Below are positions 24,040-45,947 of a stretch of 45,947 bases of DNA, piece by piece. The DNA comes from Deltaproteobacteria bacterium (lineage in GTDB: Bacteria > Desulfobacterota > Desulfarculia > Adiutricales > Adiutricaceae), in contig JAISZC010000071.1 of the NCBI GenBank assembly GCA_031269485.1, positions 1 to 45,947 of the forward strand, written 5' to 3'. How positions within the stretch are numbered: the first letter of the stretch is position 1; each line of letters opens with the position of its first letter. The position numbers and the translations under genes are program-made. The notes beneath the pieces are model-generated. The model ran no database searches. It was not told where the DNA came from and worked only from the letters and a program-made list of their open reading frames with translations.

Positions 24040-24375
24040 CGGCCAGGCCTCGTCCCCGGCGTTGAACCGTCGGCGGGCGCCAGTCGGAGCGGTCAAATTA
24101 ACGATTAAGCGCCATTCGGTTTGGATAAATTTTAATGACGTAGACGTCTAAAATAAACTTTAAATAATTAAGCTTAATAGTTGATATTATTTATATATTA
24201 TATCTAATGCAAATAGTATATCTGATATTGTTAGTTAATGAGAATTGTTATTAAATAAATATCAAAATTTATATAGCTTATACGACTATTAAGTCTAGTT
24301 TTGCATCAATAGAAAAACTTTACGGCTGACGTCGCCGCCGCCGCCAGGGCCGCCCAGTCTGAGGTCGGTCGGCCC
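24040..24375. other. AT-rich gene-free region upstream of rubrerythrin
   Basis: Bases 24100-24310 are very AT-rich with many TATA-like words and contain the Fur/PerR-like box at 24239-24253. No gene is supported. Confidence 0.6.
24239..24253 (+). promoter_or_regulatory. Fur/PerR-type operator candidate
   Basis: The 15-base sequence fits the 7-1-7 inverted pattern TGATAAT-N-ATTATCA at 12 of 14 positions. It lies in the AT-rich stretch upstream of the rubrerythrin/desulfoferrodoxin genes, which are typical iron- or peroxide-responsive targets. It is about 120 bases upstream of the promoter proposed at 24376, so it may serve another start site or be chance in AT-rich DNA. Confidence 0.35.
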
Positions 24376-28466: not shown

Positions 28467-29657
28467 CCTGTTCCAAAAAAATATAACATTTGACAAGATT
28501 GGACAAAAACAGTGAGAGGTCCCCAAAAGGTCGCTATTACGCTTGTCAACTGCTGTGAGACGGAATTGAAGCGTATCCAGCTCAGTCAGGCCGGCCAAAT
28601 CGCGCCCGCCAATCCAGGCGGCCTGCATTGAGTCGTTGCCACACCAAGCAAGCATCAGTCTGTAAAGCTATTTTACATTTATTTTTTTACACTAAGACAA
28701 TCAGTTAGTTAAATGTATTAAAATAATAATATATTACTCTGTGTATTATTAAACATCAATATTGAAACTAAAAAGACGATAATTTCTAAAGACAGTTGAA
28801 ATATGGTGCTCTGTTGTTAAATTTTGCTTAATGATAATTAATTACCTTTTATTCTTCTGTTAAAGTTTACAAAGGTTTTTCATATTGTTGATAAATACAT
28901 TATATTCATTATGAAATATTGACAATATATAATAAATATTTCTATAATAAGTTTGCATTTAAAAAGATATATTATGAATAAATAGAGTTATTTTTGAAAT
29001 TCATAAAAATATAGGCTATTTTATGCGTTGATGATGATTTTATGCGCTATAATTCAGCTGTTTATATGGTAATTTGATTTTATAGATGTTATAATAGACT
29101 ATATTAAATGCAATTCCTCAGCGAACGCCTCGTCTGCAGAGACGTTGGGGTCTTCAGCTTTCTTTTGAGGCACTTTTCGCGTCGTCAAAGCTCGGGACCG
29201 CCGGCGCCGGCCTGCCTTGGCCAGGCTGATTTTGCGCCAAATCAGCCGGAGAGGCGGGCGGCGCAAGACCGTCATGCGGCCCGAAAGGGCAAGGCGGCTG
29301 GCCTGAGGTCTCGGCAAGCCTCCGGAATATGGCGGCCGCCCCGAGCAGGAGCCCATAAGCCGCTTGAGCCGCTTGGTCACTCTAACACAGAAAAAGGCGA
29401 GTTAAATTTTTTTTTATCCGCCGTTTTGCCGAGGGTTGACGGGCGACCGTCTCGGCGTCGGCGCGTCATTGGTCAACCGACCCGCGGGAGACGACGCGTG
29501 GCGTTGAGCTCACGTTTGGCGCCGGGCCTAATCAAGGGCTGTCGATTGGCGGGACGGGCTGGTCCCGGCGCGGCCGACTAGCCGGGCTTATTTGGCGCGT
29601 CGCGTCGTCAACAGTTTTGGCCCGTCCGCCTCGGCGCCCTTGCCGGCCGCTCCAGGT
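28467..29657. other. 1.2-kb gene-free region, AT-rich desert followed by GC-rich spacer
   Basis: Bases 28650-29110 are strongly AT-rich with no frame of note; 29110-29657 are GC-rich, with only biased chance frames such as 29099-29380 minus. I see no DnaA-box cluster, tRNA or repeat array. The near-repeat TTTTATGCG appears at about 29020 and 29039. This is the longest unexplained stretch in the window. Confidence 0.55.
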
Positions 29658-36831: not shown

Positions 36832-36985
36832 TATTGAATAGGTGCGCACTACGGCCTTGGCCTTTTTTGGGAGCCCTTCAAAGCGGCATGACGCGTGGCT
36901 GCCCAGGATTGGCGGCCTGCGGCGCCGGCGGATCGGTCCTGCGGCGCCGGCTGGGCGGCGGCTTGGCCCCCATGAGGAGCAGCTG

Positions 36986-37489
36986 ATGGATAACCCATCG
37001 ATTTCACCTAGTCGTATAAATATAGTCTATAAAACCAATGCTGACAAGAATAAAACTGACAAAGAACTGCCGTTAAAATTATTAGTTCTAGGCAATTTTA
37101 CTAGATCAGATGAAGATAATACTTTAGAAGAACGTCAAACTTTTAATATATCTAGTAAAAATTTAGATTTAATTATGAAAAATTTGGATATAAATCTTAA
37201 ATTAATAGTTAAAAATCGGTTAGCTAATGATTCAGAAGAAAAAATTCCGTTAAACTTAAAAATTACGTCCATAAGTGATTTTGAGCCTGATAATCTGCTT
37301 GAAAATATGCCAGAACTTAAAAAGCTGGCAGATTTATGCATAGCTCTTAAGACGACTCAAAAAACACTGGCCGCGCGGCCGACCCTGTGGAAGCGCCTGA
37401 GGACCGTGCTGGCCGACGAAGACGCCAAGGCCGATCTGCTCAAAACTTTGCAGGAAGCCCGCCTGAAAAGCGGCGAGCCGTCGGCCTGA
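36986..37489 (+). CDS. tssB: TssB-type sheath small subunit, first copy (mosaic composition)
   Basis: This 167-aa protein is a TssB (VipA/ImpB) homologue, one half of the contractile T6SS sheath. Family marks are RINIVYKT near the start, LKLLVLGNFTRSD, a central linker and SDFEPDNLLENMPEL in the second half. Sequence order matches the second copy 105 bases downstream but identity is only moderate, so this is not a recent duplicate. The first 380 bases are very AT-rich (7 GC of 60 in 37141-37200). From about 37365 the gene turns GC-rich (40 of 60 in 37381-37440). The frame is open 48 codons upstream, but AGGAG at 36975-36979 decides the start. Confidence 0.9.
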   Translation: MDNPSISPSRINIVYKTNADKNKTDKELPLKLLVLGNFTRSDEDNTLEERQTFNISSKNLDLIMKNLDINLKLIVKNRLANDSEEKIPLNLKITSISDFEPDNLLENMPELKKLADLCIALKTTQKTLAARPTLWKRLRTVLADEDAKADLLKTLQEARLKSGEPSA

Positions 37490-37594
37490 CTTTGGGCGCG
37501 ACAGGGCGCCCTCGGCCCGACGGAGCCGGCCGGCCGGCGACGCTCAATGACCGCGACAACGCTTCGCCAACCTAATGAGAAATGAGGAGAAGAC

Positions 37595-38080
37595 ATGGCC
37601 AGCGAATCTTCCGTAGCGCCCAAGGAAAGGGTCAACATAGTCTACAAGGCGGCCACGGGCGACGCCCAGGCAGAGGTGGAGCTGCCCAACAAAATCATGG
37701 TGGTCGGCGATTTCACCCAGCGGCCCGACGAACGGCAGGTCGAGGACCGGGCCCCGATTTCCGTGGACAAGGACAATTTCGACGACGTGCTCAAAAGCCA
37801 AAGCCTGAGCCTCGACTTTGCGGTCAAAAACAACCTCGTCGAGGATCCGGAGGCCTCCATGCCGATCCACCTTAATATAGAGTCGCTAAAGGATTTTGAG
37901 CCCGATTCGGTGGCCAAGGCCGTGCCCGAAGTGGCCGCGTTGCTGCAGATCCGCGACGCGCTCAAGGCCCTCCGCGGCCCGTTGGCCAACGTGCCTGACT
38001 TCCGCAAGAAGATTCAGGAACTCGTCAAAGACGAAAGCGCCCGGGAAAAACTCCTCAGCGCTCTCAACATCGACAAGTAA
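37595..38080 (+). CDS. tssB: TssB-type sheath small subunit, second copy
   Basis: This 161-aa TssB/VipA protein forms with TssC the sheath that contracts around the Hcp tube. It has the usual N-terminal VNIVYKAA, then VELPNKIMVVGDFTQRPDERQVEDR, the DNFDDVLKSQSLSLDFAVKN block and DFEPDSVAKAVPEVAAL. Its composition is uniformly GC-rich, unlike the first copy. A GAGGAGAAG site lies just before the ATG and tssC starts 32 bases after its stop, so it is the natural partner of TssC. Confidence 0.95.
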   Translation: MASESSVAPKERVNIVYKAATGDAQAEVELPNKIMVVGDFTQRPDERQVEDRAPISVDKDNFDDVLKSQSLSLDFAVKNNLVEDPEASMPIHLNIESLKDFEPDSVAKAVPEVAALLQIRDALKALRGPLANVPDFRKKIQELVKDESAREKLLSALNIDK

Positions 38081-38112: not shown

Positions 38113-39582
38113 ATGCCTGAAGAAAAAGCGGCTGACGCCGCCCAGACTGCAACGCAACTTGATCTCCTCGACGAAATAGTCGAGGCCTCGCGCCTCAAGC
38201 CCGGCGAAAGCGGCTACGACGCGACCAAGGCCGGACTCCAGGCTTTTCTGTCCGAACTGATTAAGACCGATCCCGACGCCAAAATTTCCGGCGCTTTAGT
38301 CGACAATATGATAAACGAGCTGGATCAGAAAATTTCAGCTCAGGTCAACGCCGTCATCCATGACGCTTCGTTTCAGAAGTTGGAGTCGTCCTGGCGCGGA
38401 CTCAAGTACCTGGTCGATCAGACCGACTTCAGGCAAAACAACAAGATCGTGCTAATGAACGTCTCCAAAGACGATTTGCTGGCCGATTTCGACGATTCCC
38501 CGGAAGTGGTGAAAAGCGGCCTGTATAAGCACGTCTACACGGCCGAGTACGGACAGTTCGGCGGCCAGCCCATCAGCGCCATCGTCGCCAACTACGACTT
38601 CGGCCCTGGCCCGCAGGACCTGAAGCTGCTGCGCTACGTGGCCTCCGTGGGGGCCATGAGCCACGCGCCGTTCATCGCCTCGGCCGACAAGAGCTTCTTC
38701 GGCATCGACGCCTGGAAGGATTTGCCCAATCTCAAGGATTTGCACTCGATCTTCGAGATGCCGCAATACGCCGCTTGGCGCTCTTTTCGAAATTCCGAAG
38801 ACGCCCGTTACGTGGGCCTGACCATGACGAAGTTTTTGCTGCGGCTGCCCTACGGTCCGGACACGGTGCCGGTCAAGAGCTTCAATTTTAAGGAAACGGC
38901 CGAATCCGACGACGATTTCTGCTGGGGCAACACGGCTTTCGCCTTGTCCTCGCGCTTGACCGACAGTTTCGCCAAATACCGCTGGTGCACCAACATCATC
39001 GGGCCGCAGGGCGGCGGAGCCGTAGAGAACTTGCCGCTGTATCATTACGAAAAAAACGGCGTCACCCAGACCAAGATTCCGACTCAGGTTCTTATTTCCG
39101 AGCGTCGAGAATTCGAGCTGGCCGAAGAAGGCTTTATCGCCCTGACCATGCGCAAGGACTCCGACAATGCGGCCTTTTTTTCGGCCAACTCGTGCCTGGC
39201 TCCCAAGATCTTTCCAAAGACGCCAGAAGGTCAGGCGGCCGAGACCAACTTTAAGTTGTCGACTCAATTGCCTTACATGATGATCATGAATCGTCTGGCG
39301 CATTACGTGAAAGTCATTCAGCGCGAGAACATCGGTACATGGAAAGAGAGGGCCGATCTCGAACGCGAGCTCAACAAGTGGATCAGCCAGTACGTCACCG
39401 AAATGGATTCGCCCGACGCCACCACCAGAAGCAAACGGCCCCTGCGTTTGGCGTCGGTGGAGGTCAACGACGTCGAGGGCGATCCCGGCTGGTATTCGGT
39501 GGGCATCAAGGCTCGCCCGCATTTCAAGTACATGGGCGCAAACTTCACTTTGTCGCTGGTGGGCAAACTCGACAAAAGCTGA
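38113..39582 (+). CDS. tssC: TssC sheath large subunit (VipB/ImpC)
   Basis: This 489-aa protein is the main sheath subunit of the T6SS. Typical stretches are VIHDASFQKLESSWRGLKYLVDQTDF near residue 80-105, PISAIVANYDFG, the SHAPFIASADKSFFG block and the C-terminal DVEGDPGWYSVGIKARPHFKYMGANFTLSLVGKLDK. The length is normal. The ribosome site AGGAGAAGG precedes the ATG. It follows two tssB genes and precedes hcp, a common gene order. In known systems TssC carries most of the sheath, and the ATPase TssH takes the sheath apart after contraction. Confidence 0.97.
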   Translation: MPEEKAADAAQTATQLDLLDEIVEASRLKPGESGYDATKAGLQAFLSELIKTDPDAKISGALVDNMINELDQKISAQVNAVIHDASFQKLESSWRGLKYLVDQTDFRQNNKIVLMNVSKDDLLADFDDSPEVVKSGLYKHVYTAEYGQFGGQPISAIVANYDFGPGPQDLKLLRYVASVGAMSHAPFIASADKSFFGIDAWKDLPNLKDLHSIFEMPQYAAWRSFRNSEDARYVGLTMTKFLLRLPYGPDTVPVKSFNFKETAESDDDFCWGNTAFALSSRLTDSFAKYRWCTNIIGPQGGGAVENLPLYHYEKNGVTQTKIPTQVLISERREFELAEEGFIALTMRKDSDNAAFFSANSCLAPKIFPKTPEGQAAETNFKLSTQLPYMMIMNRLAHYVKVIQRENIGTWKERADLERELNKWISQYVTEMDSPDATTRSKRPLRLASVEVNDVEGDPGWYSVGIKARPHFKYMGANFTLSLVGKLDKS

Positions 39583-39861: not shown

Positions 39862-40341
39862 ATGGCTCTCACCTCTTACATGGCATTCAATGGCAATTCC
39901 CAAGGGGACGTCAAGGGCGACTCCCAGCAGGGCGGTGACAAGAAGGACAAAATATTGGTCTACGGTGTTGATCACTTGGTGGAGATCCCCCGCGACACCC
40001 ACACGGGTTTGCCGACGGGCCAGCGCATTCACCACCCGCTGAAGGTAATCAAGCACAAGGACCAGGCCAGCCCCAAGCTTTTCAAGGCCTGCTGCACCGG
40101 CGAGCAGGCCTCCGTGACGTTGGACTACTACCGCATCAAGCCCGACGGGACTGAAGAGAAATATTTCACCGTCAAGCTGGAAGAAGCCATCGTCGTCACT
40201 ATGCGGGAGTACACGCCGTTGACGTTCCTTGTGGAGAACAAGCCCTATCACGACATGGAAGAAGTCTCTATGACCTACTCGAAGATCACCTGGACCTACA
40301 ACGACGGCAACATCGAATACGTCGACGATTGGAAGGCCTGA
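39862..40341 (+). CDS. hcp: Hcp, T6SS tube protein
   Basis: This 159-aa protein forms hexameric rings that stack into the T6SS inner tube and also act as an effector carrier. Family marks are the start TSYMAFNG, KGDSQQGGDKKDKILVYGVDHLVEIPRD, HHPLKVIKHKDQASPKLFKACC, LDYYRIKPDGTEEKYFTVKLEEA and SKITWTYNDGNIEYVDDWKA. AAAGGAAGG precedes the ATG. The 280-base gap from tssC holds its own promoter-like element, which suits the high Hcp demand. A degenerate second copy lies directly downstream. Confidence 0.97.
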   Translation: MALTSYMAFNGNSQGDVKGDSQQGGDKKDKILVYGVDHLVEIPRDTHTGLPTGQRIHHPLKVIKHKDQASPKLFKACCTGEQASVTLDYYRIKPDGTEEKYFTVKLEEAIVVTMREYTPLTFLVENKPYHDMEEVSMTYSKITWTYNDGNIEYVDDWKA

Positions 40342-45788: not shown

Positions 45789-45947
45789 GTGAGCCAGTCT
45801 GCCGCATATTTTTCGTTCTCTTTCGACGATTGGCCCTCCATTGAAGCGCACGTTTTGAGGTTTTCCGGTCAGGCGGCCTTGAACACCCTCTACAGCTTTA
45901 AAATAACTTTGCTCGTGCCCGTCAGCCTGTTCAACGACGTCGATTGG
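45789..45947 (+). CDS. vgrG: VgrG/TssI spike protein, 5' part only
   Basis: Fifty-three codons are present before the window ends. A GTG start with GGGAGAAG at good spacing leads into YFSFSFDDWPSIEAHVLRFSG, then QAALNTLYSFKITLL. This matches the N-terminal beta-domain of VgrG (gp27-like), in which the phrase VLRF-G-AL---Y-F-I-L recurs. VgrG forms the trimeric tip of the T6SS and often carries effectors. It is placed 185 bases after tssA on the same strand. Domain content beyond residue 53 cannot be seen, so an effector fusion is unknown. Confidence 0.85.
   Translation, partial: MSQSAAYFSFSFDDWPSIEAHVLRFSGQAALNTLYSFKITLLVPVSLFNDVDW

What the first reader, a model, noticed from the sequence alone, without database searches (positions are those of the whole stretch)
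36986..38080. Two divergent tandem TssB sheath subunits in one T6SS cluster
Most T6SS clusters carry one tssB next to tssC. Here two tssB genes lie back to back, only moderately alike, both with intact frames and good ribosome sites. They could build a mixed sheath, give two alternative sheaths, or one could be a regulator or adaptor of the sheath.
Basis: partly seen in the sequence, partly recalled or inferred. Interest (0 to 1): 0.7.

Follow-up and report, generated by a model that had tools for sequence, protein, structure and literature searches.

The report
Second sheath pair in one T6SS
This uncultured bacterium makes its molecular spear gun (type VI secretion system) with two different versions of both sheath proteins, and the odd version has lost the parts used to recycle the sheath, so it probably forms a special ring of the machine rather than a spare copy.

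Summary
In detail: two intact tssB genes lie in tandem (36986-37489 and 37595-38080) before tssC. They share 35% identity, and both pass the curated TssB cut-offs. Copy 2 is the canonical subunit. Copy 1 (TssB') belongs to a separate TssB clade found in 14 of 37 genomes of this bacterial family and in no other lineage among 395 sampled genomes of the phylum. It tracks a second, divergent large subunit, TssC', encoded on another contig of this genome as the first gene of a TssE-F-G-J-K-L operon; broken vgrG ends suggest the two contigs adjoin. TssB' and TssC' co-occur (p=2e-6) and their trees split alike, yet 14 of 16 such genomes have one TssF, so both pairs serve one machine. TssB' keeps the handshake strand but lost GPLxNxPxFR (0/15 against 19/19). 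TssC' lost the ClpV-binding LLDEI(I/V) motif (0/16). Alphaproteobacterial ImpD/TssC40 is an independent duplication in a similar position that also lacks the motif. Best reading: TssB'/TssC' form a specialised, non-recycled sheath ring, most likely at the baseplate. Pairing and position are inferred. Codons 1-120 of copy 1 are unusually AT-rich.

The parts
36986..37489 (+). tssB' (copy 1): divergent second sheath small subunit
   Evidence: Pfam PF05591 122.8 bits, TIGR03358 122 bits; monophyletic clade with 14 homologues from relatives, 92/73; Foldseek top hits VipA 5ojq/5mxn
36971..37370 (.). AT-rich core of tssB' (mean GC 0.30, minimum 0.20 per 150 bases) in a contig of 63% GC; the last ~45 codons return to genome composition
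   Evidence: not seen in homologues
37595..38080 (+). tssB (copy 2): canonical sheath small subunit
   Evidence: PF05591 177.6 bits; groups with canonical TssB of the family
38113..39582 (+). tssC: canonical sheath large subunit with ClpV motif LLDEIV
   Evidence: PF05943 421 bits; motif
39862..40341 (+). hcp (tssD), tube protein
   Evidence: PF05638 112 bits
41315..44089 (+). clpV (tssH), sheath-recycling ATPase; the only hit over the TIGR03345 cut-off in this genome
44086..45603 (+). tssA (ImpA_N + VasJ type)
45789..45947 (+). first 53 codons of vgrG, cut by the contig end; contig C148 ends inside a vgrG from about codon 488, so the two contigs probably adjoin

Best explanation
Copy 1 (TssB') is the small subunit of a second, specialised sheath heterodimer. 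Its partner is TssC', encoded just before the baseplate genes tssE-F-G-J-K-L of the same T6SS. SHOWN by sequence: TssB' is an old, conserved paralogue; it co-occurs with TssC' and both trees split the genomes alike; most genomes with the pair have a single TssF and a single ClpV; TssB' keeps the N-terminal handshake strand and TssC' the C-terminal strand used to interlock with neighbouring rings; TssB' lost GPLxNxPxFR and TssC' lost the LLDEI(I/V) motif that recruits ClpV. INFERRED: TssB' binds TssC'; the pair forms one ring, or a few, at the baseplate end, docking on TssE and serving as the platform on which canonical TssB/TssC polymerise; because ClpV cannot grip it, this ring stays on the baseplate when the rest of the contracted sheath is dismantled.
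For: TssB' clade in 14 of 37 family genomes. Co-occurrence with TssC' 13/1/3/20, Fisher p=2e-6; of the three genomes with TssC' only, G010 and G024 have contig breaks at the place, G011 is unexplained. TssB' and TssC' trees show the same split into two genome groups. TssC' lies directly before TssE in own genome, L069 and L078. One TssF in 14 of the 16 genomes with TssC' (G019 has two, G010 several pieces); at most one ClpV over the cut-off in all of them but G010, which has two. ClpV motif 0/16 in TssC' against 20/23 in canonical TssC, the other three having LLExII (motif role in PMC4239648). GPLxNxPxFR 0/15 against 19/19; handshake strand consensus unchanged. Domain 3, made of the TssB helix and TssC N-terminal helices, is the ClpV-targeted outer layer and is absent from non-recycled pyocins (PMC5807055). 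[quoted passage not shown] Alphaproteobacterial ImpD/TssC40, an independent duplication, sits just before TagJ-TssE and lacks the motif; it is needed for Hcp secretion but not for TssB/TssC41 stability (PMC3702570).
Against: No direct evidence that TssB' binds TssC'. A mirror-tree test controlling for canonical TssB and TssC found no extra rate covariation (partial r=-0.03, p=0.54, 12 genomes). The position (baseplate end or distal end) rests on gene order and analogy only. A sister TssC' group (Ci, five genomes) has no TssB', so TssC'-like proteins can work without one. Several TssB' genes are not next to tssB but near vgrG or alone. Loss of a short ClpV motif does not prove loss of ClpV action: P. 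aeruginosa HsiC1 lacks it and still binds ClpV1 (PMC4239648).
Confidence: 0.5

Rival explanations
1. TssB'/TssC' is a distal cap or terminator ring that ends sheath growth, acting with TssA at the end far from the membrane.
For: Loss of the recycling module would also suit an end cap. In several relatives TssC' lies close to tssA and clpV (L075: clpV-tssA-tssC'; L072) and in genus g7 directly after clpV. The V. cholerae distal end is distinct and of unclear composition (PMC5813253).
Against: In own genome and others TssC' is the first gene of the TssE-F-G operon. TssB' and TssC' both keep the strands that dock on the ring below, which is what a first ring needs on TssE. Own genome already has a TssA.
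Confidence: 0.17
2. TssB'/TssC' is a complete alternative sheath that can replace TssB/TssC on the same baseplate, for example a one-shot sheath not recycled by ClpV.
For: A full heterodimer is present with both interlocking strands retained, and the ClpV motif is lost. G019 and G005 have several B-C units with one or two baseplates.
Against: No second Hcp, ClpV or baseplate set accompanies it in own genome. tssB' and tssC' lie apart, each joined to other machine parts, rather than as a sheath operon. TssB' and TssC' evolve about three times faster than canonical TssB/TssC (mean distances 1.71 and 0.93 against 0.53 and 0.29), unlike a major structural polymer.
Confidence: 0.15
3. TssB' pairs with the canonical TssC of its own operon, making a mixed sheath or tuning contraction, for example through its variable linker length.
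For: In five genomes tssB' sits directly upstream of tssB-tssC. The strand-to-ELP linker is 11 residues in 19/19 canonical TssB but 9-12 in TssB', and elongating the VipA N-terminal linker changes contraction in V. cholerae (PMC5797969 abstract). Own TssB' keeps PELKKL in the contact helix.
Against: Family genomes with canonical TssC but without TssC' lack TssB' (only the 68% complete G036 has TssB' without TssC'). The contact helix and turn, which face TssC, are among the most changed regions.
Confidence: 0.12
4. Copy 1 is a decaying or recently replaced duplicate with no present function in this strain; the AT-rich core marks foreign or relaxed sequence.
For: GC3 of about 0.2 in codons 1-120 against 0.80 in copy 2, and a long terminal branch (1.32).
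Against: The frame stays open through an AT-rich stretch where the other forward frames have 17 and 23 stops. All residues invariant in the TssB' family are kept. Orthologues in 13 other genomes have normal composition.
Confidence: 0.06

Closest known systems
TssB/VipA (T6SS contractile sheath small subunit, PF05591 / TIGR03358)
   Same: Fold, length, handshake strand and ELPxK core strand; passes both curated cut-offs; encoded next to tssB-tssC.
   Different: Separate paralogue clade; lacks GPLxNxPxFR; variable linker; diverged TssC-contact helix; occurs beside a canonical TssB in the same system.
A. tumefaciens TssC40/ImpD and the alphaproteobacterial tssB-tssC-tssC-tagJ-tssE cluster
   Same: A second TssC in one T6SS, encoded just before the baseplate genes and lacking the N-terminal ClpV motif; TssC40 is known to be non-redundant (PMC3702570).
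   Different: ImpD arose independently: a common clade with TssC' is rejected (AU p=9e-9). Alpha systems have TagJ between ImpD and TssE and only one TssB; here TssC' comes with its own TssB'.
eCIS sheaths with several sheath paralogues (Afp2/Afp3/Afp4, Pvc2-4)
   Same: One contractile sheath built from more than one kind of sheath protein (review PMC12961389, for Afp).
   Different: eCIS sheath subunits are single chains, extracellular and not recycled; there is no TssB/TssC split and no ClpV (own knowledge).
Tvp class III accessory genes (DUF2169-pentapeptide TvpAB, TvpB, DUF3540 TvpC; PMC13373197)
   Same: The same gene set lies directly upstream of TssC' in own genome and in most relatives.
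   Different: Tvp loads the VgrG-PAAR spike; no sheath paralogue was mentioned in the passages read.

Membership tests
TssB/VipA sheath small subunit | Match over curated HMM cut-off | tested here: met
   122.8 bits against 24 (Pfam) and 122 against 97.25 (TIGR03358)
TssB/VipA sheath small subunit | N-terminal handshake strand RVNIVYK and ELPxK core strand | tested here: met
   RINIVYK and ELPLK present; consensus of the strand identical to canonical
TssB/VipA sheath small subunit | C-terminal GPLxNxPxFR turn after the TssC-contact helix (invariant in canonical TssB of this set; not a formal requirement of the family) | tested here: not met
   Helix region still predicted helical but GPLxNxPxFR 0/15 in TssB' against 19/19 canonical
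TssB/VipA sheath small subunit | Forms a heterodimer with a TssC and polymerises | not testable with these tools
   No complex prediction or co-purification available
ImpD/TssC40-type second TssC (for the partner TssC') | Common descent with alphaproteobacterial ImpD | tested here: not met
   ImpD groups with ImpC of the same plasmids; common clade rejected, AU p=9e-9
ImpD/TssC40-type second TssC (for the partner TssC') | Encoded just before the tssE baseplate operon | tested here: met
   Own L067 and relatives L069, L078, and the sister group L079, L081, L084, L086; ImpD-TagJ-TssE in L131, L132
ImpD/TssC40-type second TssC (for the partner TssC') | Lacks the LLDEII-type ClpV motif | tested here: met
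   0/16 TssC', 0/4 of the sister group; 0/2 ImpD, but the alpha ImpC proteins also did not match the strict pattern
ImpD/TssC40-type second TssC (for the partner TssC') | Required for secretion and not redundant with the main TssC | not testable with these tools
   Known only for A. tumefaciens TssC40 (PMC3702570)
Second, independent T6SS | Own baseplate, tube and ClpV set | tested here: not met
   One TssF, one ClpV over cut-off, one Hcp in own genome, which is 76% complete; one TssF in 14 of the 16 TssC' genomes

The most novel reading that the evidence does not exclude
Some T6SSs build the first ring of their sheath from a dedicated heterodimer (TssB'/TssC') that ClpV cannot dismantle, so a permanent sheath-initiator ring stays on the baseplate between shots. 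The same solution arose at least twice: here as a full pair, and in alphaproteobacteria as ImpD/TssC40 alone.
Probability: 0.4. Interest if true: 0.8.

Novelty: new variant of a known kind. Interest (0 to 1): 0.6.

Why it matters
T6SS sheaths are modelled as polymers of one TssB/TssC pair that ClpV dismantles. A second pair that keeps the interlocking strands but has lost the recycling elements, in genomes with one baseplate, suggests the sheath has distinct rings, as in extracellular injection systems. It would also offer a role for the long-known but unexplained second TssC (ImpD/TssC40), which sits in a similar place and arose independently. Whether a sheath foot survives on the baseplate between shots then becomes directly testable.

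Tried and rejected
A first scan with the single copy-1 protein found no relatives, because the query was too divergent; the alignment scan worked. Gammaproteobacterial, Nannocystis and Plesiocystis hits of that scan were single TssB genes next to tssC, so they are not TssB'. I tested whether the 850-1069-aa TssC' proteins are TssA-TssC fusions, because they follow clpV: the extra N-terminus is low-complexity Pro/Ala-rich sequence without a Pfam domain, so this was rejected. TssC' as an ImpD orthologue was rejected by tree and AU test. Mirror-tree rate covariation of TssB' with TssC' was null. G013 seemed to have only TssB'/TssC' and no canonical pair, but its ClpV gene starts at the contig edge and no Hcp was found, so a missing contig explains it. 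A second independent T6SS was rejected by the TssF and ClpV counts. The AlphaFold model of TssB' is of modest quality (pLDDT 70.5, N-terminus below 50) and only supports fold class. TssB'-TssC' dimer modelling was not available.

Full report
Observation. Two tssB genes lie in tandem at 36986-37489 and 37595-38080, followed by tssC, hcp, clpV and tssA. Both pass the Pfam and NCBIfam cut-offs for TssB and are 35% identical. They are the only TssB genes in this 2.59-Mb, 76% complete genome. The frame is open through this stretch although the other two forward frames hold 17 and 23 stops. Homologues in relatives have normal composition, so the AT-rich core is peculiar to this genome.

A conserved paralogue. 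A search of 60 related genomes and all 37 family genomes found copy-1 relatives (here TssB') in 14 family genomes, own included. They are in tandem directly upstream of tssB in own, G006, G020, G028 and G032. In G019 there are two TssB' copies, each upstream of a B-C-hcp unit. Elsewhere they lie near vgrG or alone. In 395 sampled genomes of the phylum no hit outside the family reached the TssB' range (at most 176 bits, against 195-236 for most TssB'). Named contigs of the relatives are 'Deltaproteobacteria' MAGs; that these come from termite and cockroach guts is my reading of the isolate names. TssB' is one clade (bootstrap 92, SH-aLRT 73), separate from all canonical TssB. It evolves faster (mean column identity 46% against 70%).

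A second large subunit. Own genome also carries a divergent TssC (here TssC') on contig C148. It is the first gene of an operon TssC'-TssE-TssF-TssG-TssJ-TssK-TssL and is preceded by DUF3540, pentapeptide and DUF2169-pentapeptide genes, which match the class III Tvp spike-loading genes (PMC13373197). The same order recurs in relatives, though in some vgrG or tssK follows TssC' instead of tssE. The window ends 53 codons into a vgrG, and contig C148 ends inside a vgrG from about codon 488 onward. The two contigs therefore probably adjoin, giving one locus: B'-B-C-hcp-clpV-tssA-vgrG-tvp genes-C'-E-F-G-J-K-L. This join is inferred.

Linkage of TssB' and TssC'. Among the 37 family genomes 13 have both, 1 has TssB' only, 3 have TssC' only and 20 have neither (Fisher p=2e-6). 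Of the three with TssC' only, G010 and G024 have a contig break at the relevant place; G011 is unexplained. The one with TssB' only (G036) is 68% complete. Both trees split the genomes into the same two groups, own genome falling with G005, G008, G013, G019 and G023. Fourteen of the 16 genomes with TssC' have one TssF; G019 has two, one of them beside its Ci system, and G010 has several pieces. All but G010 (two) have at most one ClpV over the cut-off. So the second pair serves the same machine as the first. A mirror-tree test found no covariation beyond the species signal.

What changed in the second pair. TssB' keeps the N-terminal strand consensus exactly and most of the ELPxK strand. The N-terminal strand is the part that interlocks rings. 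The TssC-facing helix and the following turn share only about 30% of consensus positions, and GPLxNxPxFR is lost in all 15 against 19/19 in canonical TssB. TssC' keeps the C-terminal interlocking strand but lacks the N-terminal LLDEI(I/V) motif in 16/16, against 20/23 canonical with the motif and three with LLExII. That motif binds ClpV in V. cholerae (PMC4239648). Domain 3, formed by the TssB helix and TssC N-terminal helices, is linked to ClpV recycling and absent from non-recycled pyocins (PMC5807055). The lost elements thus lie in and next to the recycling module.

Independent parallel. Alphaproteobacterial clusters have two tssC genes, ImpC and ImpD, with ImpD followed by TagJ and TssE. 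ImpD groups with ImpC, not with TssC'; a common clade is rejected (AU p=9e-9). In A. tumefaciens ImpD (TssC40) is needed for Hcp secretion but not for TssB/TssC41 stability (PMC3702570). The strict motif pattern was also absent from the alpha ImpC proteins, so for ImpD the loss of ClpV binding is less clear than for TssC'.

Interpretation. The best reading is a specialised sheath ring made of TssB'/TssC', most likely next to the baseplate, that starts the sheath and is not dismantled by ClpV. Its gene order beside TssE, the retained interlocking strands, the faster evolution (unlike a bulk polymer) and the single baseplate set favour it. The pairing, the position and resistance to ClpV are inferences. 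Rivals are a distal cap, an alternative sheath, a mixed TssB'/TssC sheath, and a decaying copy.

Novelty. A second TssC in one T6SS is known (ImpD/TssC40). I found no description of a dedicated second TssB/TssC pair in one T6SS in nine literature searches of the open-access library, which does not hold most subscription papers. I rate it a new variant of a known kind.

Noticed in passing
L124:2337-3911, L126:1636-3201, L125:2164-3732, L123:1329-3062: Single 521-577-aa ORFs match both VipA/TssB (N-terminal part) and VipB/TssC, with a ClpV-like gene nearby in three of the four; similar hits occur in about 20 genomes of the phylum. They look like fused one-chain TssB-TssC sheath proteins.
   Followed up: partly
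window 36971-37370: AT-rich coding core (GC 0.20-0.30) inside tssB' in a 63% GC contig, in frame and open; cause unknown (recombination with an AT-rich donor or local relaxed composition).
   Followed up: partly
window 28601-29180, 24061-24360: Other very AT-rich stretches (minimum 15-17% GC per 150 bases), largely without long ORFs.
   Followed up: no
L054:309-3062, L056:13540-16377, L071:581-3313, L083:6585-9794, L069:8249-10978: TssC' of genus g7 (and G003) carries a 400-600-residue Pro/Ala-rich low-complexity N-terminal extension in place of the ClpV-binding N-terminus.
   Followed up: partly
L067:16051-17700: The C-terminal part of own vgrG is AT-rich (25-39% GC), another AT-rich T6SS segment in this GC-rich genome.
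   Followed up: no
L079, L081, L084, L085, L086: A sister group of TssC' (Ci) sits just before TssE in five family genomes that lack TssB' for that system, so the second TssC appears older than the second TssB.
   Followed up: yes
L063: G019 carries two consecutive TssB'-TssB-TssC-Hcp units followed by one ClpV and TssA.
   Followed up: no
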